Below are positions 27,556-61,065 of a DNA stretch of 64,000 bases, one piece after another. A program made the position numbers and the translations under genes. Position 1 is the first letter of the stretch; each line of letters opens with the position of its first letter. Source of the DNA: Lycium barbarum (lineage: Eukaryota > Streptophyta > Magnoliopsida > Solanales > Solanaceae); NCBI RefSeq assembly GCF_019175385.1, contig NC_083337.1, positions 47,158,938 through 47,222,937 on the forward strand, read 5' to 3'. Under the pieces are notes generated by a model, which saw only the letters and a program-made list of their open reading frames with translations, was not told where the DNA came from and did not search any database.

Positions 27556-27658
27556 TGACGAAATTATATCAGCCCTAACGCGTCAAAATGCGTAAAAGTT
27601 TCGGGGTTAAGCGTGCTCAAGCCAGAGCAATTCTGGGATGGGTGACCCCCTGGGAAGT
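27556..27658 (+). ncRNA. 5S rRNA-like cassette, copy 1 of B
   Basis: Aligned by hand with a plant 5S rRNA recalled from memory, this is colinear without gaps over positions 1-103. Matches concentrate at GTTAAGCGTGCT (box A region) and GGATGGGTGACCCCCTGGG (box C region). The middle of helices II and III is diverged and the last 16 bases of 5S are missing. It is not a 5S gene but a captured derivative. It begins 291 bp after the gag stop. Confidence 0.8.
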
Positions 27659-28189
27659 GATGCAAAGTTTTTCATGAGTGAGAGTATGATTAAAATAAAT
27701 GGAAATTTGGGGTAACCAAAAGGTAAATAGAATGTGTGTGGAATAATTAGCGCCCTTTCGGGAGTCACGCGGAACGAGGCGGACTAAACGGGCAAAAAGA
27801 AAAAGGGTATAACACTGCTTGGGAAATTGAATGAACTTGAATAACAACCAGAGATATTCGCCAGTAAGGTCCGAATAAGTGTGTGTATGTGTACGTGTAT
27901 GTGTATGTGTGTGTATGATTTCCATTCAGTGCCATGTGGGCTAAGAGCCGAGCCCCGGCAACTAATGTTGCGATAAATAAAAGATAAGCAGTGTGAGTAA
28001 TTGGAATCTTTGAAGGAGTCGATACGGGAGACGCAAGACAATTTGTGTGATAACGTGGCGGATAAGGTTACGAATAAAGGGAAATTCTCATGAATTATTG
28101 GAGCCTTAATAGGAATGATTTGATCCTAAATTGACAATCTATCTCTGGTGCTTCTGCACTTCCGATTCCGATGAGGCTCTGCCTAGTAC
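27659..28189 (+). other. Noncoding interior of B between 5S-like cassette and 42-bp repeats
   Basis: No open frame of note. It has a short TGTGTATGTGTA run at 27880-27915. No domain or relic of pol recognised. Confidence 0.6.
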
Positions 28190-28660
28190 GCCTATATATC
28201 TCTGAGTTCGACTATGTTCCCGTCTGATGAATCTTTGTGTGTTTGATCCTGAATACGTTTCTGTCTGGCACACCTCTGTATGTCTGACTCTGGATATAAG
28301 TCCGTCTGATATGCTTCTGTGCGTTTGATTTTGACCGCGCGTGTGTTTGATACATTTCGGTTTGTCTGATCACGACTGTGTATGAGATAATTCTGTACGT
28401 TTGATTCTGATTTCGAATCTGTTCGATATGATTCCGTACGTCTGACCTCGATTATGAATCTGTCTGGTGTATCTTCGTGTGTTTGATTCTGCTTACAAAT
28501 TCGTCCGATACGCCTTTGTACGTCTAACTCCGATCCCAGATTTGTTTGACACATTTCAGTCTGTCTGATATACTTCTATACCTTTGATGTTGACTATGAA
28601 TCTGTCCGATATGCTTATGTGCGTCCGGCTTTAGTTCTGAATCTGTTTGGCATGAAGTGT
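28190..28660 (+). repeat. Degenerate 42-bp tandem repeat in B, interior 1
   Basis: About eleven imperfect copies of a 41-42 bp unit of the type TCTGATATGCTTCTGTGCG then TTTGATTCTGATTATGAATC. Because 42 is a multiple of 3, the minus strand reads as a 14-residue periodic open frame (28192-28554). No transcription or start signal supports a gene there. Confidence 0.75.
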
Positions 28661-28948
28661 CTGATATGAAGTAAAGTGAGATTACGACGATGCGGTAAGG
28701 AAACTCAGGAGTGTGACAAGAAAATGATATTGACTATGATGTCTGGAAAGCGTTCGTCCATTACAAGAATATAGCGTGTGGTCCGGTAATCACGTGGGGT
28801 ATGAGAAAGTGTATTATGAAGGCATTTGAGTCAGTGACGTGAAAATTTTCCCCCTAATGTTGGTAAAGGAGCCATGTCGGAAAAATCAATAAAGGACAAC
28901 TATCAAGAGAACCCTCCCGGAGTAGTACGACACCCATGAGGTCGATTC

Positions 28949-28984
28949 AACATTCGACGACGAATGTTCTTAAGGGGGGGAGAA
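28949..28984 (+). promoter_or_regulatory. Pre-PPT hairpin and polypurine tract, B interior 1
   Basis: AACATTCG (28949-28956), loop ACGA, CGAATGTT (28961-28968), then AAGGGGGGGAGAA running into LTR2. Confidence 0.9.
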
Positions 28985-31900
28985 TGTTATGTCCCGTGTT
29001 TTCGTGTAATTGGAAATCGAGAAATAATTTCGACTTGTGTGTTTTAAGGACATAACTTGATTTTAGTAAATATGACTATGTTGGTTATGGAATCATTAAT
29101 GTCAAGACCTCGGGGAAGGCCGAGGGTAAATTTGGAATTTCAGAAATTAGTTTCGGGAATTACAAAACGGGACTTTTAATGAATCGGGCCAAGAAAATTG
29201 AATACAAAAATTGAGGCCCAAAGAGTGAAGTGGCCGGCCAAGGGAGCAAGTCCAAGCCCATTTCATTAAGGTCATGTGCTATGCACATGACCTATAAGTG
29301 GATATATATCATGTTGGTCCTTAGAATTATCAAGAACTTAATCAAAAATTCAAGAACAAAAAGAGAAAGGGGGTTCGGCCGAATAGAGAAAAGGAGAAAG
29401 AAATAATTTTCCAAGCTTTGTTGTTAATCCAAAATTCTTAATTTCTACATAGTTGTGAAGTACTCAAGACGCTCTCCGACGTGATACAAGTAGTTTGGAG
29501 AAAGAGCGACGTTTGCGACAAGTCGGAAATTCAAGAAAAGGTATGAATTTTGTCCTCTTAATGTTATGAAATGGATATGTATGTGTTAGTGATTGGATTA
29601 GCATGAAGATTATGGGATGGGGTCGTGTTTGTGCATGGCGTGTGTGTGTGAAAAGGGTGTGTTTGGCCGTGTGCCTTAGATGGGAAAACAAGTGTGAATT
29701 GATTTCGTTTAAGGTTGTTAGTTGTGTCGTCATGGCCTTTATAACGTAAATGATTGATTGAAGAATTGATTTGGTGTTAGAAAATGATTTCGGAACGTTA
29801 TCGGAAAGTGTATACCTTTGGTATATTTGTGTATATCATAGTATATTTATGATACTAAAGACTTTAAATATGATTTATGGTTGATGATAATGAATTCGGA
29901 ATGAAACGACGCAAGTTAGAATGTTCGTCGTAACTTTTGGTGTTTTGAATGAAATATGGAAAGTAATGAACTTTGGGGAAGTTTGTATGTGGTTTGGAAA
30001 TTGTTGGTGGTGTGTTTGAATAATTGTGAATGAATAGACTAGTGTGGAAATAGATTTGGAATTTTGAAGTTTGAATATAGAATTACCAACTTATGTAATA
30101 AGGTGCAATTTTGAAGTTAGTGTGGTTGATTGTGGTTTGTATTGTGTAATGATGTTTGGGATTGTTGTTGTTGTTGTATTTTGAGCCGAGCCAAGTCTCG
30201 GGGATGTTAGATTTATAGGGGAAATGCTGCCGAAATTTCGGTAGCCAAGTATAGCCCCAAAGATGAAAATGCTAACTCTCATGAATAGTAACTGGTAAAA
30301 GTGACCATTTGCAGTTTTCGGACGAAACGGGAATCGCGATTTGACGAGCGTAAGGCGCCAACCAGGTATGTAAAGCCTACCTATCCTTCTTTTGGCATGT
30401 CCTAGTCATACTAGGTTAATATCGGAATCTCGGGGGTAACTCTGCTCTTGGAAGTTCAAGTTTGGGTACTATTCATCCAGCGCAATTGAACCCTTTTGTG
30501 GCATTTGGTCAAAGGAATGTTCGAATCGTCATAACTTTTGTGGTGTTGTCCGAAACCCTCCGAAACTTTCGTAGATGGCTCTAGGGAGCCTAAGGTCTGT
30601 GATTTGCGTCTGCCGCCTCAATTTGACTCGAGGTGGGCCCACGAGCCCCGAGGCTCCCCTTATTCGGTTTGTTTGGTTCGTTTGCGTCCGCTATGACCAG
30701 TGATCGTTTGTTTATGACTCAATGGTGCGTTTGAAACTTTCTATGCCGTTAGTGAACGTTTTGTACTTTGAATAATGTGAGATTTTCGGAAAATGACCTA
30801 TAAACAGCTTTTTTCTAAAGATTTGGCAGTTTGGAACTTCGTAACTTTTATACACAAATTTTGTTCAATCTGATTCCTACTCCGAGCCTTCTGGCGTCGG
30901 TATATACCTATATGTAAACTATATGTTGAGTCCGGTAAATTATTTTTGATATGCATATGGTTTCTGCACTACTCTGTTCGTGCTGTCTGCTATGAGTTCG
31001 TTCGTCGGTACCCGGGCCGACTTTGTGATCGTGCGCGCTATAACATATTCGGGAGTTATGATGTGTTACGGTTTCCGAGGCCTCGCCATAGGGCCGGTTA
31101 CCGTTTATGGAGTTGTGATGTGATATGGCATTTGATATGTTCTGATAATGTGATGTGTGTGTGATATGATGTGTCTGGAGACTGTACGGAGATTTGAAAA
31201 CTTCTGGAGTTATGATGTGTTGTGGCACCAGCGTCGGGGGGTGACCACGTTCCTAAACCCTATACATGATTTGATTGCATTTGTACGTTCGCCTCCCGCA
31301 CAGGTTTGCTTTGTTTACGTTGGCGGTGTGTTTGTTCTTTCTGACTCCAGCTGTGTTTGTGATTTCTGTACCTTCTGCTTTACATACTCAGTACTTCTCC
31401 CGTACTGACCCTCGTTTCTTCGGGGGCTGTGTTTTATGCCCGCAGGTACTGAAGCTCGTTTGGGTGGTCCTCCAGTTTAGGCTACTCATTCTGCTGTGTT
31501 GGAGACCTCCCCTTGATTCGGAGCCTACTTTTGGTACATATCTTCTGTTGTATGTGTGTGTTCGGTACATTTGTGGATGTGTGGGTACGGCGGGGCCCTG
31601 TCCCGTCATATGTTCATATGTTCTGTTTTGTTTAGAGGCCTGTAGTCAGATTTGTGGGTCGTGGGTCCGGTGTGTTTGTATGTGAGTCTGTTTTGCGATC
31701 TTAAGCGGCGCGTACGCTACTATGGCCAAGTCGGCCTCTGAGTTTGTATGTGTGTGTGTGCATTTGGGCGATGTACATTCCGCCCCTTTCTGATGTGTGT
31801 GTGTGCATTTGGGCGACATATATTCCGCCATCTTTCTGATTTTTATTTGGCTAATCTGAACGGGCGACCGCTTAAGATAATTGTTCGATAAATGTTTGTG

Positions 31901-32039
31901 TCTGGCGTGTGCTGCTCATTTTCAGTTCGGATAACGCATGCTGAGTTTGATTGAGTTTGAATACGATGATCGGGTTGTGAGTTGGTTTGGGGTGCCTAAG
32001 TAGGGCACCAGTCGCGGCCCACGGGGTTGGGTCGTGACA
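28985..32039 (+). repeat. LTR2 of element B (recombinant middle LTR)
   Basis: 3055 bp. Up to 30441 it shares the diagnostic bases of LTR3; from 30727 on it shares those of LTR1. It has one private G-to-A change near 31808. It serves as 3' LTR of the first unit and 5' LTR of the second. Confidence 0.95.
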
Positions 32040-32043
32040 AAAG

Positions 32044-32055
32044 TGGTATCAGAGC
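32044..32055 (+). other. Primer binding site, interior 2 of B
   Basis: TGGTATCAGAGC, identical to copy 1. Confidence 0.93.
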
Positions 32056-32098
32056 GGTTTGTCCTCGGAATGTCTACAGGCCATGTCTAGTAGAGTCT

Positions 32099-32134
32099 TG
32101 TTTATCGATGTGTTGTGCACCACATCTATAAACA
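32099..32134 (+). promoter_or_regulatory. Leader hairpin with GTGCAC loop (B, interior 2)
   Basis: Same sequence and structure as at 25662-25697. Confidence 0.65.
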
Positions 32135-32249
32135 GGAAGCTACAGGACATCTAGGATGTTGTGTTACCCTTTCTTTGGAATCTTAGATCGTGCGATAGAG
32201 CTGTGCTATTAGGGTCATTCTGATCTGACCCGTTGTTGTGTTTGCAGTG

Positions 32250-33701
32250 ATGCCTCCGAAGAAGGCAACGGCGGCCCAGAAGGGCAAGGCGAAGGTGGGA
32301 GAGACCAGTCAGGCACAACGAGCTACTCGGGCTCGTGTCTATGATTTGCCTGAGGTTGCACCTCATTCTGAGGGGTCTGCTACACCCCCATTAGTACAGC
32401 CTGGAGCAGGACCTTCAGCAGCTCCAGAGGTCCGTGTACCCGCTCCTGAGACTCCAGCTCCTCAGCCAGGGGCGGAGGATAGGTCCCTGAGGGAGGCTGT
32501 ACAGTTGTTGACCACGATAGTAGCGGGGCAGGCTCGCAGGCGCGGGCGGAGGGACGATGATGATGAGGACAGGCGGGACAGCCTGAGGGTTCGGGAGTTC
32601 TTGTTATGTGGCCCTCCCGAGTTTTTCGGGTCTAAGCCCGATGAGGACCCCCATGACTTCATTCGGGGGATGCGGCGTGCATTAGACTTGGTCAGGGCTT
32701 CAGAGACCGAGTCGGTTGAGCTAGCTACGCATAGACTTCGGGATGTTGCCGCGCATTGGTATGAGACTTGGGAGCTATCCCGGGGTGAGGGTGCTCCTCC
32801 AGCTATGTGGGATCAGTTTGTGACTGCTTTCACCCGCCACTTTCTGCCCCCAGAGTTACGACGGGAGCGAGCTGATCGGTTTTTACATCTGCAGCAGAGG
32901 GGTCGAAGTGTTCGTGAATATAATTTGGAGTTTGATTCCCTGGCCCGGTATGCCCCTGCCGTGGTGGCAGATATGACAGACCGGATGCATAGATATGTTA
33001 TGGGGTTGGATCGTTACCTGATTGACGGCTGTATGGCGGTGTCATTGCAGACAGATATGGATATTGCCCGTCTACAGGCCTACGCCCAGGGGATGGAGAA
33101 CCGGCACCGAGCAGATCGGCCCAGCAGAGAGTATGATGGGAGACTGCCGAAGAGGGCCAGATCAGCGGGGCATTTTGGAGATTCTCGGGGCGGGCAGCCT
33201 CAGTATCAGTCCAGTGGGTACTTTCCTCCGTCAGGCCGGGACACACAGTCTGTTAGTAAGAGATTTGATGGCGCAGGACCGTCCAGGGCAGACCAGAGTT
33301 CCAGAGCCCCAGGTCCTCAGGCGAGCAGGGGTCCCAGTCAGACTTGGCCACCTATGCCCCCGTGTTCGTATTGTGGAAGATCGCACCCAGGTGAGTGCTT
33401 CAGGGCCACAGGGGCCTGTTTTGCTTGCGGCCGCCAGGGCCATATCATGCGGGATTGTCCGTGGGCAGGCGGTTCCGGTAGCGCAGCACCGCCGATGAGA
33501 TCCGTTGCTGGTTCTTCATCTACCCCTTCGGCCATGCGCTCCACGGGGCGAGGTATGCCAGCACCGGCGGGCCGCGGTAGAGGCCGTGGTGGGGGTTCAG
33601 ATTCTAGCGGTCCCTCGAACCGCATTTATGCTTTGACTGGTCGGCGGGACCCAGAGGCATCCCCAGATGCAGACCCAGGTATATTACTAACCTTTTTCTG
33701 A
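32250..33701 (+). CDS. gag: Gag of element B, copy 2 (intact)
   Basis: 483 residues, identical in protein sequence to copy 1 at 25813-27264. One silent change is visible (AGC to AGT, Ser, near 33257). Same core, zinc knuckle and Gly/Arg-rich tail. No pol follows. Confidence 0.93.
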   Translation: MPPKKATAAQKGKAKVGETSQAQRATRARVYDLPEVAPHSEGSATPPLVQPGAGPSAAPEVRVPAPETPAPQPGAEDRSLREAVQLLTTIVAGQARRRGRRDDDDEDRRDSLRVREFLLCGPPEFFGSKPDEDPHDFIRGMRRALDLVRASETESVELATHRLRDVAAHWYETWELSRGEGAPPAMWDQFVTAFTRHFLPPELRRERADRFLHLQQRGRSVREYNLEFDSLARYAPAVVADMTDRMHRYVMGLDRYLIDGCMAVSLQTDMDIARLQAYAQGMENRHRADRPSREYDGRLPKRARSAGHFGDSRGGQPQYQSSGYFPPSGRDTQSVSKRFDGAGPSRADQSSRAPGPQASRGPSQTWPPMPPCSYCGRSHPGECFRATGACFACGRQGHIMRDCPWAGGSGSAAPPMRSVAGSSSTPSAMRSTGRGMPAPAGRGRGRGGGSDSSGPSNRIYALTGRRDPEASPDADPGILLTFF

Positions 33702-33992
33702 ATGAATATGCACAATGATAGGTCTGTACCTCAGTATTATGCGATATTCTCTTTTTGTGTGTCAGTAAAAGTAGGGTAAGAATCCGAGTTAATGAAAATA
33801 TCCGAGGCAGTTATCTGTGCATGTGGGAGGGAAAATATATGGAATTTGGAAGGCTAGAACGATAAACCACGCAGCCAGAAAAGCAAACGACCTCTTTGGG
33901 TCAGAGTGGGACCCGCTACGAAAAATTTTCGAAAAATTTACTAAGACCCCGTTTGGCCTAAAATTACGTGACAAAGGTCGTGCGGGGGCAAT

Positions 33993-34095
33993 TGACGAAA
34001 TTATATCAGCCCTAACGCGTCAAAATGCGTAAAAGTTTCGGGGTTAAGCGTGCTCAAGCCAGAGCAATTCTGGGATGGGTGACCCCTTGGGAAGT
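33993..34095 (+). ncRNA. 5S rRNA-like cassette, copy 2 of B
   Basis: Same as 27556-27658 except C to T at 34087, in the box C region (5S position 95). Confidence 0.8.
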
Positions 34096-35097: not shown

Positions 35098-35385
35098 CTG
35101 ATATGAAGTAAAGTGAGATTACGACGATGCGGTAAGGAAACTCAGGAGTGTGACAAGAAAATGATATTGACTATGATGTCTGGAAAGCGTTCGTCCATTA
35201 CAAGAATATAGCGTGTGGTCCGGTAATCACGTGGGGTATGAGAAAGTGTATTATGAAGGCATTTGAGTCAGTGACGTGAAAATTTTCCCCCTAATGTTGG
35301 TAAAGGAGCCATGTCGGAAAAATCAATAAAGGACAACTATCAAGAGAACCCTCCCGGAGTAGTACGACACCCATGAGGTCGATTC

Positions 35386-35421: not shown

Positions 35422-38400
35422 TGTTATGTCCCGTGTTTTCGTGTAATTGGAAATCGAGAAATAATTTCGACTTGTGTGTTTTAAGGACATAACTTGATTT
35501 TAGTAAATATGACTATGTTGGTTATGGAATCATTAATGTCAAGACCTCGGGGAAGGCCGAGGGTAAATTTGGAATTTCAGAAATTAGTTTCGGGAATTAC
35601 AAAACGGGACTTTTAATGAATCGGGCCAAGAAAATTGAATACAAAAATTGAGGCCCAAAGAGTGAAGTGGCCGGCCAAGGGAGCAAGTCCAAGCCCATTT
35701 CATTAAGGTCATGTGCTATGCACATGACCTATAAGTGGATATATATCATGTTGGTCCTTAGAATTATCAAGAACTTAATCAAAAATTCAAGAACAAAAAG
35801 AGAAAGGGGGTTCGGCCGAATAGAGAAAAGGAGAAAGAAATAATTTTCCAAGCTTTGTTGTTAATCCAAAATTCTTAATTTCTACATAGTTGTGAAGTAC
35901 TCAAGACGCTCTCCGACGTGATACAAGTAGTTTGGAGAAAGAGCGACGTTTGCGACAAGTCGGAAATTCAAGAAAAGGTATGAATTTTGTCCTCTTAATG
36001 TTATGAAATGGATATGTATGTGTTAGTGATTGGATTAGCATGAAGATTATGGGATGGGGTCGTGTTTGTGCATGGCGTGTGTGTGTGAAAAGGGTGTGTT
36101 TGGCCGTGTGCCTTAGATGGGAAAACAAGTGTGAATTGATTTCGTTTAAGGTTGTTAGTTGTGTCGTCATGGCCTTTATAACGTAAATGATTGATTGAAG
36201 AATTGATTTGGTGTTAGAAAATGATTTCGGAACGTTATCGGAAAGTGTATACCTTTGGTATATTTGTGTATATCATAGTATATTTATGATACTAAAGACT
36301 TTAAATATGATTTATGGTTGATGATAATGAATTCGGAATGAAACGACGCAAGTTAGAATGTTCGTCGTAACTTTTGGTGTTTTGAATGAAATATGGAAAG
36401 TAATGAACTTTGGGGAAGTTTGTATGTGGTTTGGAAATTGTTGGTGGTGTGTTTGAATAATTGTGAATGAATAGACTAGTGTGGAAATAGATTTGGAATT
36501 TTGAAGTTTGAATATAGAATTACCAACTTATGTAATAAGGTGCAATTTTGAAGTTAGTGTGGTTGATTGTGGTTTGTATTGTGTAATGATGTTTGGGATT
36601 GTTGTTGTTGTTGTATTTTGAGCCGAGCCAAGTCTCGGGGATGTTAGATTTATAGGGGAAATGCTGCCGAAATTTCGGTAGCCAAGTATAGCCCCAAAGA
36701 TGAAAATGCTAACTCTCATGAATAGTAACTGGTAAAAGTGACCATTTGCAGTTTTCGGACGAAACGGGAATCGCGATTTGACGAGCGTAAGGCGCCAACC
36801 AGGTATGTAAAGCCTACCTATCCTTCTTTTGGCATGTCCTAGTCATACTAGGTTAATATCGGAATCTCGGGGGTAACTCTGCTCTTGGAAGTTCAAGTTT
36901 GGGTACTATTCATCCAGCGCAATTGAACCCTTTTGTGGCATTTGGTCAAAGGAATGTTCGAATCGTCATAACTTTTGTGGTGTTGTCCGAAACCCTCCGA
37001 AACTTTCGTAGATGGCTCTAGGGAGCCTAAGGTCTGTGATTTGCGTCTGCCGCCTCAATTTGACTCGAGGTGGGCCCACGAGCCCCGAGGCTCCCCTTAT
37101 TCGGTTTGTTTGGTTCGTTTGCGTCCGCTATGACCAGTGATCGTTTGTTTATGACTCAATGGTTCGTTTGAAACTTTCTATGCCGTTAGTGAACGTTTTG
37201 TACTTTGAATAATGTGAGATTTTCGGAAAAAGACCTATAAACAGCTTTTTTCTAAAGATTTGGCAGTTTGGAACTTCGTAACTTTTATACACAAATTTTG
37301 TTCAATCTGATTCCTACTCCGAGCCTTCTGGCGTCGGTATATACCTATATGTAAACTATATGTTGAGTCCGGTAAATTATTTTTGATATGCATATGGTTT
37401 CTGCACTACTCTGTTCGTGCTGTCTGCTATGAGTTCGTTCGTCGGTACCCGGGCCGACTTTGTGATCGTGCGCGCTATAACATATTCGGGAGTTATGATG
37501 TGTTACGGTTTCCGAGGCCTCGCCATAGGGCCGGTTACCGTTTATGGAGTTGTGATGTGATATGGCATTTGATATGTTCTGATAATGTGATGTGTGTGTG
37601 ATATGATGTGTCTGGAGACTGTACGGAGATTTGAAAACTTCTGGAGTTATGATGTGTTGTGGCACCAGCGTCGGGGGGTGACCACGTTCCTAAACCCTAT
37701 ACATGATTTGATTGCATTTGTACGTTCGCCTCCCGCACAGGTTTGCTTTGCTTACGTTGGCGGTGTGTTTGTTCTTTCTGACTCCAGTTGTGTTTGTGAT
37801 TTCTGTACCTTCTGCTTTACATACTCAGTACTTCTCCCGTACTGACCCCCGTTTCTTCGGGGGCTGTGTTTTATGCCCGCAGGTACTGAAGCTCGTTTGG
37901 GTGGTCCTCCAGTTTAGGCTACTCATTCTGCTGTGTTGGAGAGCTCCCCTTGATTCGGAGACTACTTTTGGTACATATCTTCTGTTGTATGTGTGTGTTC
38001 GGTACATTTGTGGATGTGTGGGTACGGCGGGGCCCTGTCCCGTCATATGTTCATATGTTCTGTTTTGTTTAGAGGCCTGTAGTCAGATTTGTGGGTCGTG
38101 GGTCCGGTGTGTTTGTATTTGAGTCTGTTTTGCGATCTTAAGCGGCCCGTACGCTACTATAGCCAAGTCGGCCTCTGAGTTTGTATGTGTGTATGTGCAT
38201 TTGGGCGATGTACATTCCGCCCCTTTCTGATGTGTGTGTGTGCATTTGGGCGACGTATATTCCGCCATCTTTCTGATTTTTATTTGGCTAATCGGAACGG
38301 GCGACCGCTTAAGATAAGTGTTCGATAAATGTTTGTGTCTGGCGTCTGCTGCTCATTTTCAGTTCGGATAACGCATGCTGAGTTTGATTGAGTTTGAATA

Positions 38401-38476
38401 CGATGATCGGGTTGTGAGTTGGTTTGGGGTGCCTAAGTAGGGCACCAGTCGCGGCCCACGGGGTTGGGTCGTGACA
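35422..38476 (+). repeat. LTR3 of element B
   Basis: 3055 bp. Its 3' half has about 14 bases that differ from both LTR1 and LTR2 (first at 37164), while its 5' half agrees with LTR2. Followed by the GTAAG TSD and the rest of solo LTR H. Confidence 0.95.
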
Positions 38477-48470: not shown

Positions 48471-48496
48471 ACCGTAGTTTTTATACGTTGAGATTT

Positions 48497-50488
48497 ATGA
48501 GTGTTGATTGTTTTAAGTATGGACGTTAGAGTTACCTTCAAGAATATATGAGATTATATGCGCCAATCTTATGATTATGAGGGTTTAAGTGCATATAATA
48601 AGATATGGGAGGATTGGAGAGCAAGTGAATCAAGAGAATTAAGTTTGTTGAAATTTTGGAAGAAAGGATGGGGGACAATTTTGGTCCAACTTGGGGAGAG
48701 AATATCTTTTAGTATATGAGAAGTTTTGAGGTAAATCAAAAGCCTAAAATGAAGTTCGTCGAGTCTAGTTTCCAACACAACAAACCGCTCGTCGATACAA
48801 CTTGGAGTAGAGAATTATGAACATTACAAGCCAGGCTGACAGAGCATAAATGCGCTGCTACAATAATCGAGCTACTACAGTAACCGACTCTAAAATGCTA
48901 TAGAAGGGGGTTTAACCCCTCATTTTCATTCCAAACACCCCTCCAACTATCCCAACTTCTCTAGAATGTTCCCTAACTTCCATCCACTAAATTTTACTGC
49001 AAATTAAGTGGAATCTCCGGGTTTAGGGTCGGATAGCGACTAGTGTGATTATAGTATCGTTTTGCAGTGGATTTCGGCTTGGATTCAAGGTGGATATTGG
49101 AGATATTATTGTTCTAACAAGGACAAGGTATGAATCTCTCCTTATTGATATTATATTCATAGTTGGACTTCTTGGCCTTGTTTTGCCGTTTGAGACATAG
49201 AGGATGCAAGTTATCAGTTGGTTCGCTCGATTTTCGTAAGGTGTCGGGTGCCAATCAGGCCTCAACAAGGTTAGGGCGTGACATAGTGGTATATGAGTGT
49301 TGATTCATTTAAGTATGAATGTTGGAGTTACCTTCAGGAACATAAAAGATTATATGCGCCAATCTTATGATTATGAGGGTTTAAGTTCATATAATAAGCT
49401 ATGGGAGGATTAGAGAGGAAGTAAATCAAGAGAATTAAGTTTGTTGGAATTTTGGAAGAAACGATGGGGGATAATTTTGGTCCAACTTGGAGAGAGAATA
49501 TCTTTTAGTTCATGAGGAGTTTTGAGGTAAATCAAATGCCTAAAATGATGTTCGTCGAGTCTAGTTTCCAATGCAATAAACCACTCGTCGAAACAACGTC
49601 GGAGTAGAGAATTATGGACGTTACAAGCCAGGCTAACAGTGCAGAAACGTGCTGCTACAATAACCGTGCTGCTACAGTAACCGACTCAAAAATGCTATAC
49701 AAGGGGGTTTAACCCCTCATTTTCATTCCAAACACCCCTCCAACCATCCCAACTCCTCTTGAATGTTCCCCAACTTCCATCCACTAAATTGTACAGCAAA
49801 TTAAGTGGAATCTCCGGGTTTAGGCCCGGATAGCGACTAGTGTGATTATAGTATCGTTTTGCAGTGGATTTTGGCTAGGATTCAAGGTGGATATTGGAGA
49901 TATTATTGTTCTAACAAGGACAAGGTATGAATCTCTCCTTCTTGATATTATATTCATAGTTGTCCTTCTTGCCCTTATTTTTCAGTTTGAGCCATAGAGG
50001 ATGCGAGTTCTCAGCTGGTGCGCTCGGTTTCTGTAAGGTGTCGGGTGCCAATCACGCCTCACCAAGGTTGGGGCGTGACAAAGTGGTATATGAGTGTTGA
50101 TTGTTTTAAGTATGGATGCTGGAGTTACCTTCAAGAATATATAAGATTATATGCGCCAATCCTATGATCATGAGGGTTTAAGTTCATATAATAACCTATA
50201 GGAGGATTGGAGAGCAAGTGAATCAAGAGAATTAAGTTTGTTGGAATTTTGGAAGAAACGATGGGGGACAATTTTGGTCCAATGTGGGGAGAGAATATCT
50301 TTTAGAATATGAGGGTTTTGAGGTAAATCAAATGCCTAAAATTAAGTTCGTCAAGTCTAGTTTCCAACACAAAATTGCTCGTTGATACGACGTCAAAGTA
50401 GAGAATTATGGACGTTACAAGCCACGCTGACAGAGTAGAAACGCGCTGCTACAGTAACCGAGCTCTAAAATGCTATAAAAGGGGGTTT
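48497..50488 (+). repeat. 797-bp tandem repeat (2.5 units) carrying LTR-end/primer-site junctions
   Basis: Units at 48497-49292, 49293-50089 and 50090-50488 (cut by element E). Each complete unit ends GGGCGTGACA-(T/A)AGTGGTAT, which looks like an LTR terminus followed by the first bases of a tRNA-iMet primer site, then restarts at ATGAGTGTTGATT. It therefore seems to be amplified LTR sequence of another family. No coding region. 48476-48496 is a short single-copy lead-in. Confidence 0.85.
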
Positions 50489-53400
50489 TGTCACACCCCG
50501 ATCTTACTAGGGTGTGATGGGTACCCGACCCCATATTCGGAGCCGAGCGAACCCGCTGACTCTTATTACATACATAACCTCTTTGGACTTCTAACTTAAA
50601 TTAAATGAAATACACAATTAGACCTTTCAGAAATATTCTTTTTCGTTGTTCCCAAATCAAACAAAATCTATAATCATTTGGAACTTATCACATACACAGA
50701 ATGACACATCGGCTGATGGATCCGCTTACATGACCGACATCCTACACCCACAACTCTGTCTGCAAAGTCTCTAACTTCAACCAAGACATCATGGCATAAT
50801 ACTCTGACCCGGCAACTCTCCAGGGGCAAATGGAGCTTGCCAACTTCGCTGGAACATCTCCTATAATGGCTTCTACTCATCTAGGTGTACCTGCGCGGCA
50901 TGAAACGCAACCCCCCAAAGAAAGGGGGTCAGTACGACCAATGTACTGAGTATGTAAGGCATGAATAGTAACATAGTAAGAGATGTAATTATGAATAATA
51001 ACAGAATTGAGATATAGAGCATATCATGGGGTAAAAGAGTAACCTGTACATCTGAGTGCCCTTTTAGGTGGGTACCATGCATGCTTAGCTTTCTTTGAAA
51101 AACATTTCTTTTTCATATATATGGAAAATAGAACATATCATATTGCCGAGGCGTCGGCTCCGATCCATTTAAACACATATATCCCGCGTCCGGGACGATA
51201 TTAACCGATGTGGGATTTGCTTGAACCAATGTGGGATTTGCCTAAATCAATGTGGGATTCGCCTAAATCAATGTGGGATTCGCCCCCCTTTAGGACTCAG
51301 CGTTCTTGCTGAGGTTTGCCCCACCATTGGGTTTGCCCCACCACCGGCTCTGATACCAACTGATCAGGTGGCAATGCGTCTATAGCGCCTCACCTTTTCC
51401 CTTGCCCCATATACTTATACATATATCATGTTCATCTATCATATACACATATCATATACATATATCATGTAAGCAGCATGCAAGAGAGCCCAAAGAATGT
51501 TATGTCTCTATCGGAGTGACGTAAGGTCGGTAACCTCCGAATATATTATGGAATAATCATCATGGCTTTGTCTCACCTTAAAGGAACAATTATTATAAGG
51601 TGAGACTAGCAACGAATAACAGCGTTAAGAGAACATAGAATAAGATCATAAATCTCATAAGGCGTCGCTTCATATACATATGCACATAGAACAATATTTC
51701 TTTTTAAAACTCGATGGGTACGTACATAAATCGACACTTGAGAGTCATAAACACGTTTCAAGTCAATCCGAGTTAGTATGAAAACGTTATGGACGTTTTA
51801 GTACAGAACCTTCTATAAACGTTTCAGAAGCTATTTTTGGAAAATCAAAGCAATAATCATATCAAGTACTTTTCGAATATCGCTTTGGATCAAATCAACA
51901 TAGAACTCTTGGAACCACACACCCGTACCAAACATAGCAAAATCGTTCCTCGGAAGTCAAGAACATTAGCCATCCTAGTGGCTCTAAGAATAGGAGGTTC
52001 TTTGAAATCATACATATACTTTGTCTGTTTGTTTCACAAAGATCATGCCAAAAGAAAAAAGGGTAAGCCTTACATACCTGCTCCACGTCCTATTAGCTAC
52101 GCATAATTGTCCAAGCTCGTTATCGCTAGTCTACATTCAAGAAGATTTACATAATCATTAGATTCATTGTCACATACATTTGCCTTAGTCTTTCAAATAA
52201 ATTCACTTATGATTTGCCGAAATTTCGGCAGCATCTCCCCTGTAAATACACCATCACCGAGAATCTAACTCGGCCAAGTCATCAATCAACAATCCGAGAA
52301 TTCAACTTGGCCAAACTATCAACAACAATACCAACAATCATGCCAACAACATCAATATTCAACTCAAGACGCATTCTAACATTAACAACCTTTGTCATAC
52401 AATTCAACGGCATTTCATTTATATTCAATTCAATTCACATAATATTCAAACAACCCAATCAACATACTACTTCACCCGAAACCTTCCAAATTCGACAAGA
52501 ACAATAACAACCTATTTTCTTCTTCCAAATTCAATTACAACAACCCAACTTACAATCTTCCAAACACATGTCTCACTTCCAAATTCATGAATTATATTTA
52601 CAACCTATACATTAACATTATCATTCATACAATATAAGAAACCATACTAATGTCACACTAACTTCTTCCATAATCCACAAACGATCACAACTTCATTTCC
52701 AACCATTAAATTCTAATTTTACATCATAGAATCCACAACTACAACAATCAAATTACTAAATAAAATCAATTCATCATAGCTACACAACATAACCTTCATT
52801 CGGCCATCACTCCAACATACCTATTTTCATGTATTTCATCCATTTCTGCATGCTACAACATAGACAAATCATCCATAACATGTAAAAGAAGATTGAACCT
52901 TACCTTTCTCCACTTGTCTTCTTACTTAGCAAGGGTTTGTAAATCACCCAAATAAATGCTTGGCTTGTTCTAACAACTCCTTCATGTTAATGAGGACCTT
53001 CCATTTGGTGGAAATACTAGAAGAAAAATATTTTTCTTGATCAATTTCTATGACCTCATTTCTCCTATCCATGGCCGAATGGCCTTATTTTTTCCTCTCC
53101 AAGTTTTCTTCTTGAAATTTCATGAATAATTTGTCTTGCCTTAGTCATCTCTCTACATATATATATATATATATATATATCTCCTTCCAATACCAAGTGG
53201 ACACATGCCCTCTTTCTTGATTTCTTAAATTAAACAAATATGACCACTTGTCTTGCTATATAAGCTTGGTCCATATATATTTATATAATTAGCCCCTATT
53301 AAATAAAAATGTGGAAATATGCTTATATGCCACACGGCCAACATGGCCCCTTCAAGAACCTTCTTGAATATTTTGTGAAATTCCCATTTTGCCCCTAGCC

Positions 53401-53577
53401 TTCCACAATATTACCATGAACCAATTTGTGAATTTCCCTTTTTACCCTTAGCCTTTCTCAATATTTCCATACTAATGAATAACTTGTTTACTAAAAAAAT
53501 TTTTGGAAAATAGTCTTGCCTTTGACTTCTCGCAATTATCTCGAATTATCCGAATGTACAAAATACGGGATATAACA
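50489..53577 (-). repeat. 3' LTR of element E (minus strand)
   Basis: Plus-strand ends TGTCACACCCCG and ACGGGATATAACA; 3089 bp. Related to S, D, F and B (ATTTCGGCAG region near 52220, GCCGAGGCGTCGGCTCCGAT near 51148). It has hairpins at 50911-50948 and an embedded unrelated segment at about 51190-51400. It inserted into the third 797-bp unit; the candidate TSD GGTTT at 50484-50488 cannot be checked because the other end is outside the window. Confidence 0.88.
51205..51400 (-). other. Foreign segment in LTR E with short repeats and a PBS-like motif
   Basis: Four near copies of AATGTGGGATTTGCCTAAATC-type 20-bp units (51205-51290). These are followed by a GTTTGCCCCACCA duplication and GCTCTGATACCA (51347-51358), whose reverse strand is the tRNA-iMet primer-site sequence TGGTATCAGAGC. 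The other LTRs of this type lack the segment. It may be the edge of another retroelement. Confidence 0.5.
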
Positions 53578-53613
53578 TCCTCCCCCCCTTTAGAACATTC
53601 GTCCTCGAATGTT
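53578..53613 (-). promoter_or_regulatory. Polypurine tract and pre-PPT hairpin of element E
   Basis: Minus strand: AACATTCG-AGGA-CGAATGTT, then CTAAAGGGGGGGA abutting the LTR. This fixes the LTR as the 3' LTR and the element as minus-strand. Confidence 0.88.

Positions 53614-55297: not shown

Positions 55298-55301
<4 letters not shown>

Positions 55302-55340
<39 letters not shown>
55302..55340. repeat. (TA)n microsatellite in element E
   Basis: About 38 bp of TA dinucleotides; low complexity. Confidence 0.93.
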
Positions 55341-55551
55341 TATCAACTAGCCCAAAAAATACTTCCAAACGCTATTCAAGCCTATCTTAATTCCAGAGCT
55401 GTGATGCACTTTCTATCTCTTCACCAGTCTAGTCTGTCTCGTCCTACGCGACCTCTCATGGTCTCCAACCATCCCATATACTCTAGTTGCCCTTAGGCCA
55501 CTCTAGCTTCTCATTTGTCTCTTATGTCTGGATATATAGAATTTCTTGCAC

Positions 55552-55654
55552 CCTTCCCAGGGGGTCACCCATCCTAAGATTTCTCCCACCTTATCACGCT
55601 TAACCTCGAAACTTCGATGGAATCCGGTGCCTTAATGCTGATATAATCGCGTCC
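55552..55654 (-). ncRNA. 5S rRNA-like cassette of element E
   Basis: On the minus strand it aligns without gaps to 5S positions 1-103 by my hand comparison. It is the least diverged of the four, keeping GCGATTATATCAGC, GGCACCGGATTCCATC, GGTTAAGCGTG and GGATGGGTGACCCCCTGGG. The upstream flank AAAGGTCATGCGAGGAAGTG matches D. It lies in the interior of a gag-only type element, not in an LTR. Confidence 0.82.
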
Positions 55655-55833
55655 ACTTCCTCGCATGACCTTTATTACATGATCTAGAGCAAGTCGAAGT
55701 CTTATAGATTCCGAGACATTTTCATAACACGTCCTTCCCTTTACAATTACTATTTTACCTTTTTCAATCCTCAATATTCACCCTTCATCTTCGTGTATCA
55801 CTTCCTTTCGTCCTAGATTCCCAGATTCCTGAT

Positions 55834-55838
55834 GGTAA
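55834..55838. repeat. Candidate TSD of element D, left copy (GGTAA)
   Basis: The five bases preceding LTR D. The right copy lies past the window, so this is a prediction. Confidence 0.6.
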
Positions 55839-58800
55839 TGTTATATCCCGTATTTCGCACCTCTGGATAATTTGAGATAATTGTGATTAATAAGAGATAA
55901 GGCAATATTTTTGATTTAATTTAATACATAAGTTGTTCATGAAAATATTAATGCGGAAATACTGAGGAAGGCTAAGGGCAAAATTGAAAATTTGGAAAAT
56001 AGTTTCATGAATTACAAAAAAATTGGTCATGGATGATTGGGCTTGGAAAAAAAAAAGGGGACAAAGCCCAAGTGTGGCCGGCCAAGGCATGGGTCAAGCC
56101 CACTTGGGAATTTTGATCTAAATGAATAAAAGGGATAAATCCCCCATAAATTGTCATTTTCCTTCAAGAACCTTCAAGAAAAGAAAAACTTGAGAGCCAA
56201 AAATAGGCCATTCGGCCAAGTGGAGAAAAGAAGAATAAAATTTTGAAGCTTCAACTTTGATCCAAAAATTTATTTCTCCTAGTATTTCCACTAATTCAAA
56301 GGTCCTCTTCAACGTGGTATAATTGTTGAAGCAAGAAAACTATTTTGGTGGCAAGTTCAAAATTCTAGTCAAGTGGAAAATTAAGGGAAAAGGTAAGAAT
56401 TCATATTCTTTTATATGTTATGCAAGGTTTATATATGTTGTAGTAAGTAGAATTGAATGAAAAATCATGGAAATATTATGTGTTGTGTGTGGGCCGTGTG
56501 GGTGTGTGTGTATAATTGTGGCGTGTGGTTGTTGAATGGTGGAGGAGTGGTGAATTAATTTTATTTAATATGTTAGTTGTGTTGTTGTGGACTCTATGAT
56601 GCCAATGAAAGACTAATGGTTCAAGTTGGCATGGAAATTTGTTGTAGGTTGTTGTAGGAAATTATACGATTTTAATATGGTTTTATGTAGTTGTGAGAAT
56701 GAAGTTGCTAAAGTATAAATTGTTGTTGTAGTTTATGAATTTGAAAGAAGAAAATGTGTTGTTGTAGCTTTTGTTGCATTTGTAGAGTTTCGGGTGGAAT
56801 GGAGTTTGGTTGGATCGTTTTGAATGTTGTTCGGGTTACTAATGTTAAAATATGTTCCAAAATTATTGTTGGTATGGTTGTTGATGAATTTGGCCGAGTT
56901 AAATTCTCGGGGTTGTTGTATTTACAGGGGAGATGCTGCCGAAATTTCTGTAGACAAGTACTAGTTAGAATTGAATTTCTAAGTACTTGTAGCTAACGTT
57001 TGGCAATTAATGACGTTACTGTAGATCTTGGGGAGCCCAAGACTTGAGTTGGGATTAGCTTAGGAGGCGAGTGAGGTATGTAAGGCCTACCCTTTTCTTC
57101 TTTGGCATGATCCTTATGAAATAAGTATATGACGTATTTGTATGACTTCAGAAAGATTCTTATTCTTAGAGCCATTATGATGTCCGATGATGTGTATCTA
57201 TGATGTCCGATGACGTGTATCTATGATGTCCGAAGTTTGGCCAATATGTTTCCGAATGGCATTTGAGAAACAAATGATATGACTATAGTTTTGACCTTCC
57301 AAATGTTAACACATTCGATTATTCCATCAAGCCTCTGATATGTTTTGATACATACATACAGTTCCAAAAGCTCTATTTGATTCGATTCATAACGATATCC
57401 GAAGGCACTTGACATGATTATGGCTCTAATTTCCCAAAAATGGCTCCTGAAATGCTTATAGAGCGTTTTGTACTTCAAACGCTCGTAACTTTCTTATTCT
57501 AAGTCGGATTGACCCGAAACTTGTTTCTGAGCCTTCAGGGGTCGGTGAGCATACTTGTCCATCGAGTCTTAGAATTTATCTATATACATATGGTTCTCGA
57601 CACTCCGCTCGTGCGTGCAACTACTATACCTTCCGCCGAGCCTCGGGCCAGTTATATCATTGTGTGCACTATGTTATACTCGCCGCTAACATGTTATGTT
57701 ATATATGGATCGGAGCCGACGCCTCGGCAGCATGATATGTTCTGTTTTCTCTACATATATGAGTAAGATATGTTTTTCAAAGGAAGTATTATTATGGATA
57801 AGTATATAGTATATTGATGGATCGGGCTACATGTTCTGCAGCAGTAAAATATATGTATGGATCGGGCTGCACGTTCCGCAGCAGTATATATTATATTTAT
57901 GGATCGGGCCAAACGTTCCTCGACAGTATATGTTATATGTATATATGGATGGGGCTGAACGTTCCTCGGCAGTATATGTTATATTTATGGATCGGGCCGA
58001 ACGTTCCTCGGCAGTATATGTTATATGTATATATGGATCGGGCCGAACGTTCCTCGACAGTATATGTTATATTTATGGATCGGGCCGAACGTTCCCCGGC
58101 AGTATATGTTATATTTATGGATCGGGCCGAACGTTCCTCGGCAGTATATGTTATATATATATATATATATATATGGATCGGGCCGAACGTTCCTCGGCAG
58201 TATATGTTATCTGTATATATGGATCGGGCCGTACGTTCCTCGGTACTAATATGTTATATATGGATCGGGCCGTACGTTCCTCGGCACCATCACATTACGT
58301 ATGGATCGGTTATATGTATATGTATATGGTGGCGTACGATGTCGGCACGTATGATCTGTGCTTTGAAAGTAAGTATTTTGGTACTTTGGATGTTTTACCC
58401 ATTTTCGGTACTTTTCTGACATATGATATCGGTAAGTATGAATTACGTTCGGAAAATAAACGCCTTGGCATTCTGTCTAACGCACTTACTTTTTGTACCA
58501 TTGTTCCAGTTATGTTTCTGTTTTCTGTATTCCATGCCATACATACTCGGTACATATTCCGTACTGACCCCCTTTCTTCGGGGGCTGCGTTTCATGCCCG
58601 CAGGTACAGACGCGTACGTGAGTGGTCTGTCAGCTTAGGTCATCCATTCTGCTGTGTTGAAGTGCTCCCTCGTTCCGGAGCCCACACTTTTGGTACAGAT
58701 CTTTCTGTTGTACATATTCATGTATATATGACTATGTTAGGGGTACGGCGGGGCCCTGTCCGGTTATGTATGTGGGTCATGGTTCATTGTTGTTCGGTTA

Positions 58801-59091
58801 TGTTTGTTTGATATGCGCCCTAAGAGATTCCAATTGCTATGATAGCCTTAACGGCTTGTGCGTATGTATATGTATGTATATGTTTTTGGGCGATATGTCT
58901 TTCGACAGCCTTGGTGGCTTCCGTATGATATTCTTACAGGTGACCGCTTAAGACGACGTCTGTTCTCAGTATCTGTATGAATTAAAATATGTTGGATACG
59001 GATAAGTTACTGATATGTCAAATTGGTGAGCAGGTGTGTACGGGTGTCCAGCTCGGGCACCTGTCACGGCCCACGGGGTTGGGTCGTGACA
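55839..59091 (+). repeat. 5' LTR of element D
   Basis: TGTTATATCCCGTA to GGGTCGTGACA, 3253 bp. It is closest to solo LTR S, sharing the GATCGGGC minisatellite and TGATGTCCG repeats. Hairpin cassette near 58550-58590. Confidence 0.93.
57810..58312 (+). repeat. GATCGGGC minisatellite in LTR D
   Basis: About eleven units of 40-55 bp with ATGGATCGGGCCGAACGTTC then CTCGGCAGTATATG. The first two are of the TGCACGTTCCGC type, as in solo LTR S. All three forward frames stay open through much of it, producing 200- and 326-codon frames that are repeat artefacts. Confidence 0.87.
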
Positions 59092-59095
59092 AAAG

Positions 59096-59107
59096 TGGTA
59101 TTCGGGC
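59096..59107 (+). other. Degenerate primer binding site of element D
   Basis: TGGTATTCGGGC compared with TGGTATCAGAGC in A and B: the first six bases match and the rest is diverged. Priming by initiator tRNA-Met is probably impaired. Confidence 0.75.
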
Positions 59108-59150
59108 GGTTTGTCCTCGGAATGTCTACAGGCCGTGTCTAGTAGTGTCT

Positions 59151-59186
59151 TGTTTATCGGTGTGTGGTGCACCACATCTATAAACA
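59151..59186 (+). promoter_or_regulatory. Leader hairpin with GTGCAC loop (element D)
   Basis: Positions 59151-59164 pair with 59173-59186 with one mismatch and one G-U; loop TGGTGCAC. A G-for-A change in the stem keeps pairing as G-U. Confidence 0.62.
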
Positions 59187-59295
59187 GGAAGCTACAGGAA
59201 ATTTAGGGTGTTACCTTTTCTTTCGATCTTAGATTTTGCGATAGAGCTGTGTTATTAGGATGGTTCTTTTCTGACGAAATGTTATGTTTTCAGCG

Positions 59296-60618
59296 ATGCC
59301 TCCGAGGAAAGCAACAGCTGCCCAGAAGGGCAAGTCAGTAGCAGTTGGAGAGACTAGCCAGAGCCAGAGAGTTACCAGGGCCCGTGCCCAGACTATGCCC
59401 GAGGTTATGCCCCAGTCAGTGGGCTCTGCTACGCCACCATTACTAGAGGAGCCTAGAGCAGCAGCCGCTGCCACTATGGATCAGGAGGCGGCTCCACCAT
59501 TAGCTCCAGAGGCCCCAGCGCCCGTGCCTCCAGCTCCACAGCCAGGGGCGGAGGACAGGGCGATGAGAGAGGCAGTACAGTTGTTGACTAGACTAGTAGC
59601 AGGGCAGTCTCGCAGACGCGGGCTAGGGGGTGATGATGTGAATAGGTATGACAGCTTGAGAGTTCGTGACTTTTTGACCTGTAATCCCCCAGAGTTCTAC
59701 GGGTCAAAGCCCGAGGAGGATCCCCAAGACTTTATTCGACAGATGCAACGTACGCTGAGATTAGTCAGAGCTTCTGAGACTGAGTCTGTCGAGCTGGTTT
59801 CATATAGATTGCGTGATGTAGCGGTTAATTGGTATGAGTCCTGGGAGCTATCTAGAGGCGAGGATGCTCCTCCAGCTGTTTGGGACGAGTTTACAGCAGC
59901 CTTTCTCGGCCATTTTCTGCCGCCCGAGATGCGACGAGCGAGGGTTGACAGATTTTTACAGCTGAGACAGAGGGGCAGGAGTGTTCGAGAGTACAGCCTA
60001 GAGTTTCACTCCCTAGCCAGATATGCGCCCACCATCGTGGCTGATATGACTGACAGGATGCACCGATATGTGATAGGGTTGGATGACTACTTGATTGATA
60101 GTTGTATGGCGATGGCATTTCAGTCCAGGATGGATATTGCACGGCTGCAGGCATACGCACAAGGAATGGAGGATCGACATAGAGGGCGTCAGCCTGATAG
60201 AGATCGTGATAGGAGGCAGCACAAGAGGGCTAGATCAACTGGATATTTTGGGGAGTCTCGAGGTGGCCGGCCTCAGCAGCAGTATAGCAGATACCCTCCC
60301 CAGTCAGCACGGAGCACACCCCCACAGTCTACGGGCAGGACACCAGATAGTGCAGGGTATTCAGGAGCAGGTCAGAGCTCCGGGGCTTCGGGCTCTACGG
60401 GTTCTTGTTTTACTTATGGCCGTCAGGGCCATTTTATGAGGGATTGTCCGCTTAGGAGGGGTTCAGCTAGTGCAGCTCAGCCTACCGGGTCAGTTGCTGG
60501 TTTATCTTCCCCTTCTGTAGCTATGCGTACGACACCGGCAGGTCGCGGTAGAGGTCGAGGAGGAGCTCCCGGTTCTAGCGGTCCTTCGAACCGCTTATAT
60601 GCTTTGGCCGGCCGATAG
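59296..60618 (+). CDS. gag: Gag of element D
   Basis: 440 residues from ATG 59296 (MPPRKATAAQKGKSVAVGE); another in-frame ATG lies four codons upstream at 59284. The order is a basic N-terminus, a Pro/Ala-rich linker, the gag core at about 133-240 (FYGSKPEEDPQDF to FHSLARYA), a Gln/Arg/Ser-rich region, then the knuckle CFTYGRQGHFMRDC, in which the second Cys is Tyr. The extra CSYCGRSHPGEC segment of B is deleted. A Gly/Arg tail ends at YALAGR followed by TAG, the same codon where A has TAA and C and G have Gln. The open frame is long, but the damaged knuckle suggests reduced nucleic-acid binding. No pol follows. Confidence 0.9.
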   Translation: MPPRKATAAQKGKSVAVGETSQSQRVTRARAQTMPEVMPQSVGSATPPLLEEPRAAAAATMDQEAAPPLAPEAPAPVPPAPQPGAEDRAMREAVQLLTRLVAGQSRRRGLGGDDVNRYDSLRVRDFLTCNPPEFYGSKPEEDPQDFIRQMQRTLRLVRASETESVELVSYRLRDVAVNWYESWELSRGEDAPPAVWDEFTAAFLGHFLPPEMRRARVDRFLQLRQRGRSVREYSLEFHSLARYAPTIVADMTDRMHRYVIGLDDYLIDSCMAMAFQSRMDIARLQAYAQGMEDRHRGRQPDRDRDRRQHKRARSTGYFGESRGGRPQQQYSRYPPQSARSTPPQSTGRTPDSAGYSGAGQSSGASGSTGSCFTYGRQGHFMRDCPLRRGSASAAQPTGSVAGLSSPSVAMRTTPAGRGRGRGGAPGSSGPSNRLYALAGR

Positions 60619-60962
60619 GACCAGGAGGCATCACCAGACGTGGTTACAGGTATACTGTTGACCTTTTTCTGAAATGTGTATGCATTGATAGACCCAGACT
60701 CTATTTTACTATATATATTTCTCTCCCCCGATTGCTAGTAAAACTGGGGTAAGAACCCGAAACTGATAGGACCGTTTGTGGTAGTTATTCATACAGATAA
60801 AAAGTGAATGTTGAGAATTTAAAAGGCTAACTCGATAATTACATAATCAGAAAAATAAAAGACCCTCTCTAGATCGGAGTGGGACCCGCTACGAGAACTT
60901 TCCGGAAATTGTTAAGACCCCGATTTACCCTAGATTATGTGAAAAAGGTCGTGCGGGGAAGT
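60619..60962 (+). other. Post-gag block before the 5S-like cassette (D)
   Basis: Starts with a short protease-like remnant (DQEASPDVVTG, then noncoding). Ends with the GTGGGACCCGCTACG ... AAAAGGTCGTGCGGGG flank shared with B. Confidence 0.65.
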
Positions 60963-61065
60963 GGGTGCAATTGTACCAGCATTAACGTATCGAAATGCAT
61001 TGGAGTTTCAAGGTTAAGCGTGCGAGGGCCAGAGCAATTTTGGGATGGGTGACCCCCTGGGAAGT
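60963..61065 (+). ncRNA. 5S rRNA-like cassette of element D
   Basis: Exactly 103 bp, aligned without gaps to 5S positions 1-103. By my hand count against a recalled plant 5S it matches about three quarters of positions, with GGGTGC at the start and complete agreement at GTTAAGCGTG (51-60) and at 81-103. Missing are the last 16 bases, so helix I cannot close. Confidence 0.82.

What the first reader, a model, noticed from the sequence alone, without database searches (positions are those of the whole stretch)
27556..61065. 5S rRNA-derived cassette inside gag-only LTR retrotransposons (four copies)
Seen: at 27556-27658, 33993-34095, 60963-61065 (plus) and 55552-55654 (minus) a 103-bp stretch aligns without gaps to plant 5S rRNA positions 1-103. 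The box A region (GTTAAGCGTG) and the box C region (GGATGGGTGACCCCCTGGG) are kept almost unchanged while the rest is roughly 60-80 percent similar by hand count; one B copy has a single change in box C. It always lies about 300 bp after gag in an element without pol. Known: Cassandra TRIMs carry 5S sequence in their LTRs, and plant TFIIIA genes carry a 5S mimic (P5SM) that binds ribosomal protein L5. Inference: here the cassette is in the interior of a gag-bearing Gypsy element, a different arrangement. Selective retention of the TFIIIA-contact boxes hints at a role: internal Pol III start, TFIIIA or L5 binding, nuclear export or packaging. I cannot tell whether it has been described.
Basis: partly seen in the sequence, partly recalled or inferred. 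Interest (0 to 1): 0.92.

Follow-up and report, generated by a model that had tools for sequence, protein, structure and literature searches.

The report
5S gene fragment inside plant retrotransposons
In a genome that appears to be wolfberry, several families of incomplete jumping genes carry a piece of the 5S ribosomal RNA gene in their middle, and while most of what surrounds it has changed, the two short stretches that switch 5S genes on have stayed nearly unaltered, which suggests that the piece still does something for the element.

Summary
All four stretches are 5S-derived, gap-free over 5S positions 1-103 (70-79 of 103 against a recalled Arabidopsis 5S; next best place in the window 47). 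Against the host's own 5S gene, A, B and C match at 73, 77 and 81. Copies 27556 and 33993 are one tandem element, so the window holds three lineages. Other tiles (199 kb) gave ten more cassettes. "Gag-only" is partly wrong: of 14 cassettes in 262,937 bases, 6 follow gag and 8, including the minus copy, lie in elements without a gag match; none has a reverse transcriptase match in its interior. Best reading: the 5S internal control region is kept as a TFIIIA/TFIIIC-binding, Pol III-type module, as in Cassandra but in the interior of non-autonomous chromovirus relatives. An RNA role is not excluded; in A and B the cassette lies in a predicted intron. Binding and transcription are untested. New variant of a known kind.

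The parts
22548..25602 (+). Element A array, LTR 1 (3055 bp); preceded by target duplication GTAAG
25607..25618 (+). Primer-binding site TGGTATCAGAGC, unit 1
25792..27264 (+). gag frame, unit 1 (490 codons stop to stop; Retrotrans_gag, CCHC knuckle)
27238..27243 (+). Predicted splice donor CCAG|GT at the gag/protease junction (intron from 27242)
   Evidence: inferred with the protein tails
27556..27658 (+). 5S-derived cassette, unit 1 (5S 1-103)
27605..27615 (+). Box A block GGTTAAGCGTG (5S 50-60), second longest invariant run among A, B, C
27636..27657 (+). Box C block GGATGGGTGACCCCCTGGGAAG (5S 81-102), longest invariant run; same letters as host 5S
28972..28984 (+). Polypurine tract
28985..32039 (+). 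Element A array, LTR 2; predicted splice acceptor GCAG|GT with exon start 31446
32044..32055 (+). Primer-binding site, unit 2
32229..33701 (+). gag frame, unit 2
33993..34095 (+). 5S-derived cassette, unit 2 (one change in box C, C95T)
35422..38476 (+). Element A array, LTR 3; followed by target duplication GTAAG
55839..59091 (+). Element B, LTR 1 (preceded by duplication GGTAA)
59275..60618 (+). Element B gag frame (447 codons, ends earlier than in A)
60963..61065 (+). 5S-derived cassette of element B
62078..62198 (+). Short integrase-like remnant in B before the 3' LTR (E 8e-8)
62324..64000 (+). Element B, LTR 2 (runs out of the window)
55552..55654 (-). 5S-derived cassette of element C (no gag match), closest of the three to host 5S
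51510..53578 (-). Element C 3' LTR, approximate far end; its 5' LTR and PBS lie beyond the window

Best explanation
A stretch of 5S (positions 1-103) was captured once by a pol-less relative of a chromovirus and is now carried by a set of non-autonomous LTR retrotransposons, some with gag, some without. What is kept is most of the 5S internal control region: box A and box C in their original spacing. The most likely mechanism is at the DNA level: host TFIIIA and TFIIIC bind the cassette and either start a short Pol III transcript (about 115 nt where a T run follows) or hold the element body open against silencing. Shown here: 5S origin, shared descent, retention of the boxes and, in six of seven lineages, of their spacing. 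Inferred: protein binding, any Pol III transcript, the benefit, and the single capture. Unlike in Cassandra, Pol III starting in the interior could not make the full genomic RNA, which would still have to come from the LTR.
For: Box C and box A blocks are the two longest invariant runs (22 and 11 nt) in the A/B/C alignment of the post-gag region. Seven lineages: mean pairwise divergence 0.052 in box A core, 0.032 in box C, 0.27 in 1-49, 0.27-0.38 in flanks; the box mask ranks 3 of 251 circular shifts. Six lineages: 4 of 35 block sites vary against 40 of 68 others. No indel in the cassette in six lineages against 6 and 4 in the 100 nt before and after it. The letters 81-103 equal the host's own 5S in five of the six lineages compared (C differs at 103), including C at 93 where the recalled Arabidopsis 5S has T. 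Five changes from host 5S (10, 34, 43, 44, 75) are shared by all six, which points to one origin. The Cassandra box motifs with 18 nt between them (PMC7215508 section 5) fit A and B, and C but for the last letter of box A (read by eye). Variable stretches beside the boxes are also reported for Cassandra (PMC10853983 section 16).
Against: The intermediate element (67-72) is not conserved (divergence 0.34), though the promoter is described as having three motifs. The upstream flank does not resemble the host 5S spacer clearly (A's score equals the best of 300 shuffles, B and C lie within them). The 5S 3' end is gone, and a T run of 4-5 follows in only 4 of 7 lineages. Conservation runs past box C to 102. 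L032 has a 9-nt deletion between the boxes. The control on recent A-type copies has the expected direction but is not significant (p 0.11, or 0.27 on substitutions alone). No transcript or binding data.
Confidence: 0.45

Rival explanations
1. The cassette works as RNA. In the full-length element RNA the box C region forms a hairpin (5S helix IV, lengthened), recognised by a 5S-binding protein (TFIIIA, L5) or by Gag, and serves export, stability or packaging of the unspliced genomic RNA.
For: RNAalifold on seven lineages without a template finds 5S-like helices II, III and IV; the extended helix IV pairs in the six lineages that have letters there, with changes on one side only that keep the pair. 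Covariation score on the 5S pairs reached by 20 of 500 shuffles (the tool warns that related sequences can exceed shuffles without structure). The cassette lies 313-314 nt inside a predicted intron in A and B, so only unspliced RNA would hold it. It occurs in elements with and without gag.
Against: No pair changed on both sides; other measures reached by 56 to 96 of 500 shuffles; pair retention against random placement of the same changes not significant (0.20-0.38 of nulls as good). Single folds are not 5S-like as a whole, though that of C holds the helix IV hairpin; only A is somewhat more stable than its shuffles (16 of 200 as stable). Positions 33-44 (loop C, recalled as the L5 side) are mostly changed in A and B.
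Confidence: 0.3
2. A cis signal with no 5S-related partner: the captured stretch was recruited for a new use, such as a Gag-binding site private to these pol-less elements, and the kept letters coincide with the 5S boxes only because that part was useful.
For: Conservation reaches beyond box C and skips the intermediate element; no cassette was found beside the reverse transcriptase matches in the tiles.
Against: Kept blocks fall on box A and box C with their spacing, and the box C letters match host 5S.
Confidence: 0.15
3. A passive relic: a 5S fragment carried along in the stretch that replaced pol, with no role.
For: The cassette outside the blocks diverges nearly as much as the flanks; some copies have changes inside the blocks (A2, L006, L010, L033; L031 and L032).
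Against: 35 block positions are 91-100% identical between lineages whose flanks are 47-88% identical; Fisher p 2.6e-6 for blocks against the rest between six lineages, though sites and lineages are not independent and the block limits were drawn after seeing the data; with the textbook box limits p is 0.003 on three lineages.
Confidence: 0.1

Closest known systems
Cassandra (TRIM with 5S promoter in its LTRs)
   Same: 5S-derived sequence in non-autonomous plant LTR elements; box A and box C kept with 18 nt between them; variable stretches beside the boxes; same PBS letters; tandem arrays occur (PMC7215508, PMC10853983).
   Different: Here the 5S part is in the interior and not in the LTR; LTRs are about 3.0-3.3 kb; some carriers have gag; relatives with pol are chromoviruses.
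Ajax (nemertean TRIM with partial 5S in its LTR; PMC10886601, passages)
   Same: Partial 5S covering the promoter motifs.
   Different: LTR position, animal host, small size, no gag.
LARDs (large derivatives that encode no protein; PMC7215508, passage)
   Same: The members without gag have long LTRs and an interior without coding matches.
   Different: I recall no 5S part in described LARDs; members with gag are not LARDs.
P5SM, the 5S mimic in plant TFIIIA pre-mRNA (recalled)
   Same: 5S-like stretch near splice sites.
   Different: P5SM is part of a host gene; no sequence comparison was made here.

Membership tests
Cassandra | 5S-related sequence inside the LTR | tested here: not met
   Cassettes lie between PBS and 3' LTR
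[quoted passage not shown]
   A and B fit; C differs at the last letter of box A (read by eye; motif from PMC7215508 section 5)
Cassandra | Miniature, non-coding element | tested here: not met
   Unit 6437 bp with 3055-bp LTRs and gag in A; carriers without gag also have LTRs of about 3 kb where both were seen (L032, C)
Ajax | Partial 5S in the LTR of a TRIM | tested here: not met
   Interior position, long LTRs
LARD | Long LTRs, interior without coding capacity | tested here: inconclusive
   No gag, RT or integrase match at E 1e-8 in the interiors of the gag-less carriers; A, B, L018, L029 and L033 carry gag
Functional 5S rRNA gene | Whole 5S sequence and structure, Rfam gathering score 38 | tested here: not met
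   34.3 bits at best; positions 104-120 not 5S-like
Ty3/Gypsy chromovirus (relatives with pol) | Chromodomain at the integrase C-terminus | tested here: met
   One related element, L027, has protease, RT, RNase H, integrase and Chromo matches; the clade name Tekay is recalled and was not tested
Pol III transcription unit | TFIIIA/TFIIIC binding and a Pol III transcript | not testable with these tools
   No expression or binding data
P5SM | Homology to the 5S mimic exon of plant TFIIIA genes | not tested
   No TFIIIA gene was fetched

The most novel reading that the evidence does not exclude
The cassette is a 5S-mimicking transport or packaging tag. Gag mRNA is spliced from the gag end into the 3' LTR and so loses the cassette, while unspliced genomic RNA keeps it; 5S-binding host proteins, or Gag itself, then recognise the tagged RNA, which lets carriers with gag and their gag-less passengers share one pathway, apart from the relatives with reverse transcriptase.
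Probability: 0.13. Interest if true: 0.88.

Novelty: new variant of a known kind. Interest (0 to 1): 0.66.

Why it matters
It suggests that capture of the 5S promoter region by LTR elements is not confined to the LTR of miniature elements. An interior position separates the possible uses of a 5S module: it could not supply the genomic transcript, so its retention would have to pay in another way, and carriers with gag, carriers without gag and relatives with pol in one genome allow a direct comparison. It also warns annotators that 5S-like hits in such genomes may be retrotransposon interiors.

Tried and rejected
Rejected: chance similarity and a functional 5S gene. Not supported: descent of the upstream flank from the host 5S spacer (A's local score of 23 equals the highest of 300 shuffles, B 20 and C 16 lie within theirs). 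The fit starts near 5S +1 and stops near 103, which would suit capture from 5S RNA; this is inference.

Led nowhere: viral contigs by pattern (0 places) and by gag (1 stretch, not confirmed). Genome-wide counts of cassettes: only the best 40 were scored, so first-look numbers 1998 and 2745 are unscored candidates. A first version of the within-lineage control counted what I read as a one-base insertion in L010 as five substitutions (p 0.002); with that taken as one event p is 0.11, or 0.27 on substitutions alone. One search printed donor-side translations in a wrong frame; only donor letters and acceptor tails are used from it. No literature hit explained the cassette (see full report).
Full report
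Host and setting. The window lies in a 1.67-Gb, 164-contig genome. Four contig lengths (134,699,017, 133,540,852, 106,533,526, 149,041,705) equal those printed beside Lycium barbarum proteins in the gag search; others differ by a few kb (C1 171,831,605 against 171,835,435). I take the host as wolfberry (inference). In the gag search the named hits are Solanaceae except one Malus protein at rank 59 of 60; the best is 72% identical (only the 7988 candidates sharing most words were scored).

The cassettes. All four places align without gaps to 5S 1-103 at 70-79 of 103, against 47 for the next best place. No Rfam match reaches the gathering score; with E up to 10 the minus copy has E 0.0027 and the other three 0.89, 1.2 and 2.5. 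The best-scoring host 5S genes form an array on contig C6 with units of about 392 bp. A, B and C match that gene at 73, 77 and 81 of 103. Positions 81-103 are the same letters as in host 5S in A, B, L018, L026 and L031; C differs at 103. Five changes (10, 34, 43, 44, 75) are shared by all six, which points to one capture.

Elements. A is a tandem array of three LTRs and two interiors, LTRs 99.4-99.8% alike, with a PBS in each interior and one 5-bp duplication around the whole. B has its LTR at 55839, gag at 59275-60618, the cassette, and a short integrase-like remnant before the 3' LTR; B is itself an array whose last unit, beyond the window, has no cassette match, and it is bounded by GGTAA. 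B sits inside C, an element on the minus strand. From C's PBS to its cassette is about 880 nt (702 nt beyond B and about 180 nt in the window), with no gag match. A and B gag differ at dN 0.20 and dS 1.26, ratio 0.16, so gag has been under purifying selection; how much of that came after pol was lost is not known.

More copies. 199 kb of tiles gave ten further cassettes. With the window that is 14 in 262,937 bases: 6 follow gag (A, A2, B, L018, L029, L033); 8 have no gag match (C, L031, L032 and five in the L025/L026 array; for one of the five the PBS lies outside the tile). The tiles lie beside the window and around two A-type hits on C7 and C8, so these are not frequencies. No reverse transcriptase match (E 1e-8) lies in the interior of any of the 14. 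Of eight stretches with a reverse transcriptase match of 90 aa or more, none has a cassette beside it, but only two were seen with both ends (window 421-13780, broken by a solo LTR, and L027); the others are partial or nested. In the shortest unit, PBS to cassette is 502 nt and cassette to 3' LTR 550 nt, so the cassette remains when little else of the interior does. Target duplications can be read for three tile elements (TGAAG, TGGCC, TGTCA). LTR pairs differ by 0.2-1.5% in the five elements measured and by about 5% in the part of B seen. In the whole genome at least 40 A-type and 40 C-type matches of 98% or more exist (40 is the scoring cap).

Conservation. Seven lineages (A, L018, B, C, L031, L026, L032) were compared. 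Mean pairwise divergence: upstream 0.35 and 0.27, positions 1-49 0.27, box A core 0.052, 61-66 0.37, intermediate element 0.34, 73-79 0.22, box C 0.032, 98-103 0.048, downstream 0.34-0.38. Textbook boxes A and C against the rest of the cassette: Mann-Whitney p 2.6e-4; circular shifts 3 of 251. The 22-letter box C block is intact in 12 of 14 cassettes (exceptions A2 and L032). L032 also lacks 9 nt between the boxes. Box A G56 is changed to A in L006, L031 and L033, so single copies do lose it. Recent A-type copies (19 sequences) show 3 events in 35 block sites against 7 variable sites in 68 others, while lineages differ at 4 of 35 against 40 of 68; this contrast has p 0.11, so the neutral control is suggestive only.

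RNA. On the 5S pair list (eight rows, one the recalled 5S) 87.9% of cells pair, reached by 96 of 500 shuffles; covariation score reached by 20 of 500. RNAalifold on the seven lineages finds helices II, III and a lengthened IV, with no pair changed on both sides. Single folds are not 5S-like as a whole, though C's holds the helix IV hairpin.

Splicing. The gag end carries CAG|GTATA in A, B and relatives with pol, and LTRs carry GCAG|GT followed by a short in-frame tail (GTEARLGGPPV in A, GTDAYVSGLSA in B, GTDDRFADPPA in the 3' LTR of the C7 element with pol). Lycium proteins from NCBI end in such tails (P0005 TGTDDRFADPSV), and so does one of Solanum dulcamara (P0013). I infer a gag mRNA spliced from the gag end to the 3' LTR, whose intron (4204 nt in A) contains the cassette. 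This rests on gene models and letters, not on reads seen here.

Prior art. Seen: Cassandra evolution (PMC10853983, outline and sections 14, 16, 21), Cassandra arrays (PMC7215508, passages and section 5), Ajax and Helenus (PMC10886601, passages), host factors of plant LTR elements (PMC12786077, passages; it says such elements generally lack introns, with Ogre and EVADE as exceptions), and pepper LTR elements (PMC7076952, passages). Searches (20 of 53 papers listed; 20 of 240; 16 of 16; 1 of 1; 8 of 8; 12 of 16) listed no paper that I could see, by title and start of abstract, to describe a 5S part in the interior of a Gypsy element; 41 (9 of 9) and 109 (10 of 134) none on this gag-to-LTR splice. 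Subscription papers are mostly not held, and no repeat database was searched.

Noticed in passing
window 27238 (donor) to 31446 (acceptor); similar signals at 60646 and in LTRs of the tiles: Predicted splice of gag into the 3' LTR, with a short in-frame tail, in carriers of the cassette and in relatives with pol; matched by tails of some NCBI proteins of Lycium and Solanum.
   Followed up: partly
L037 (C11, near 94.07 Mb): Second 5S locus with units of about 253 bp, some places holding only the 3' part of 5S; TAGTTAAGCGTGG, like box A, lies in its spacer.
   Followed up: no
C6:25.569-25.587 Mb: Host 5S array: the listed genes switch strand near 25.584 Mb.
   Followed up: no
window 57801-58286: Internal tandem repeats in the LTR of element B, overlapping a 333-aa open frame without Pfam match.
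   Followed up: no
window 48485-50488: Three tandem copies of a unit of about 796 bp.
   Followed up: no
L025 and L026 (C1:47.243-47.263 Mb): Tandem array of a carrier without gag, at least five cassettes with a period of about 4.4 kb; compare the tandem arrays of Cassandra (PMC7215508).
   Followed up: partly
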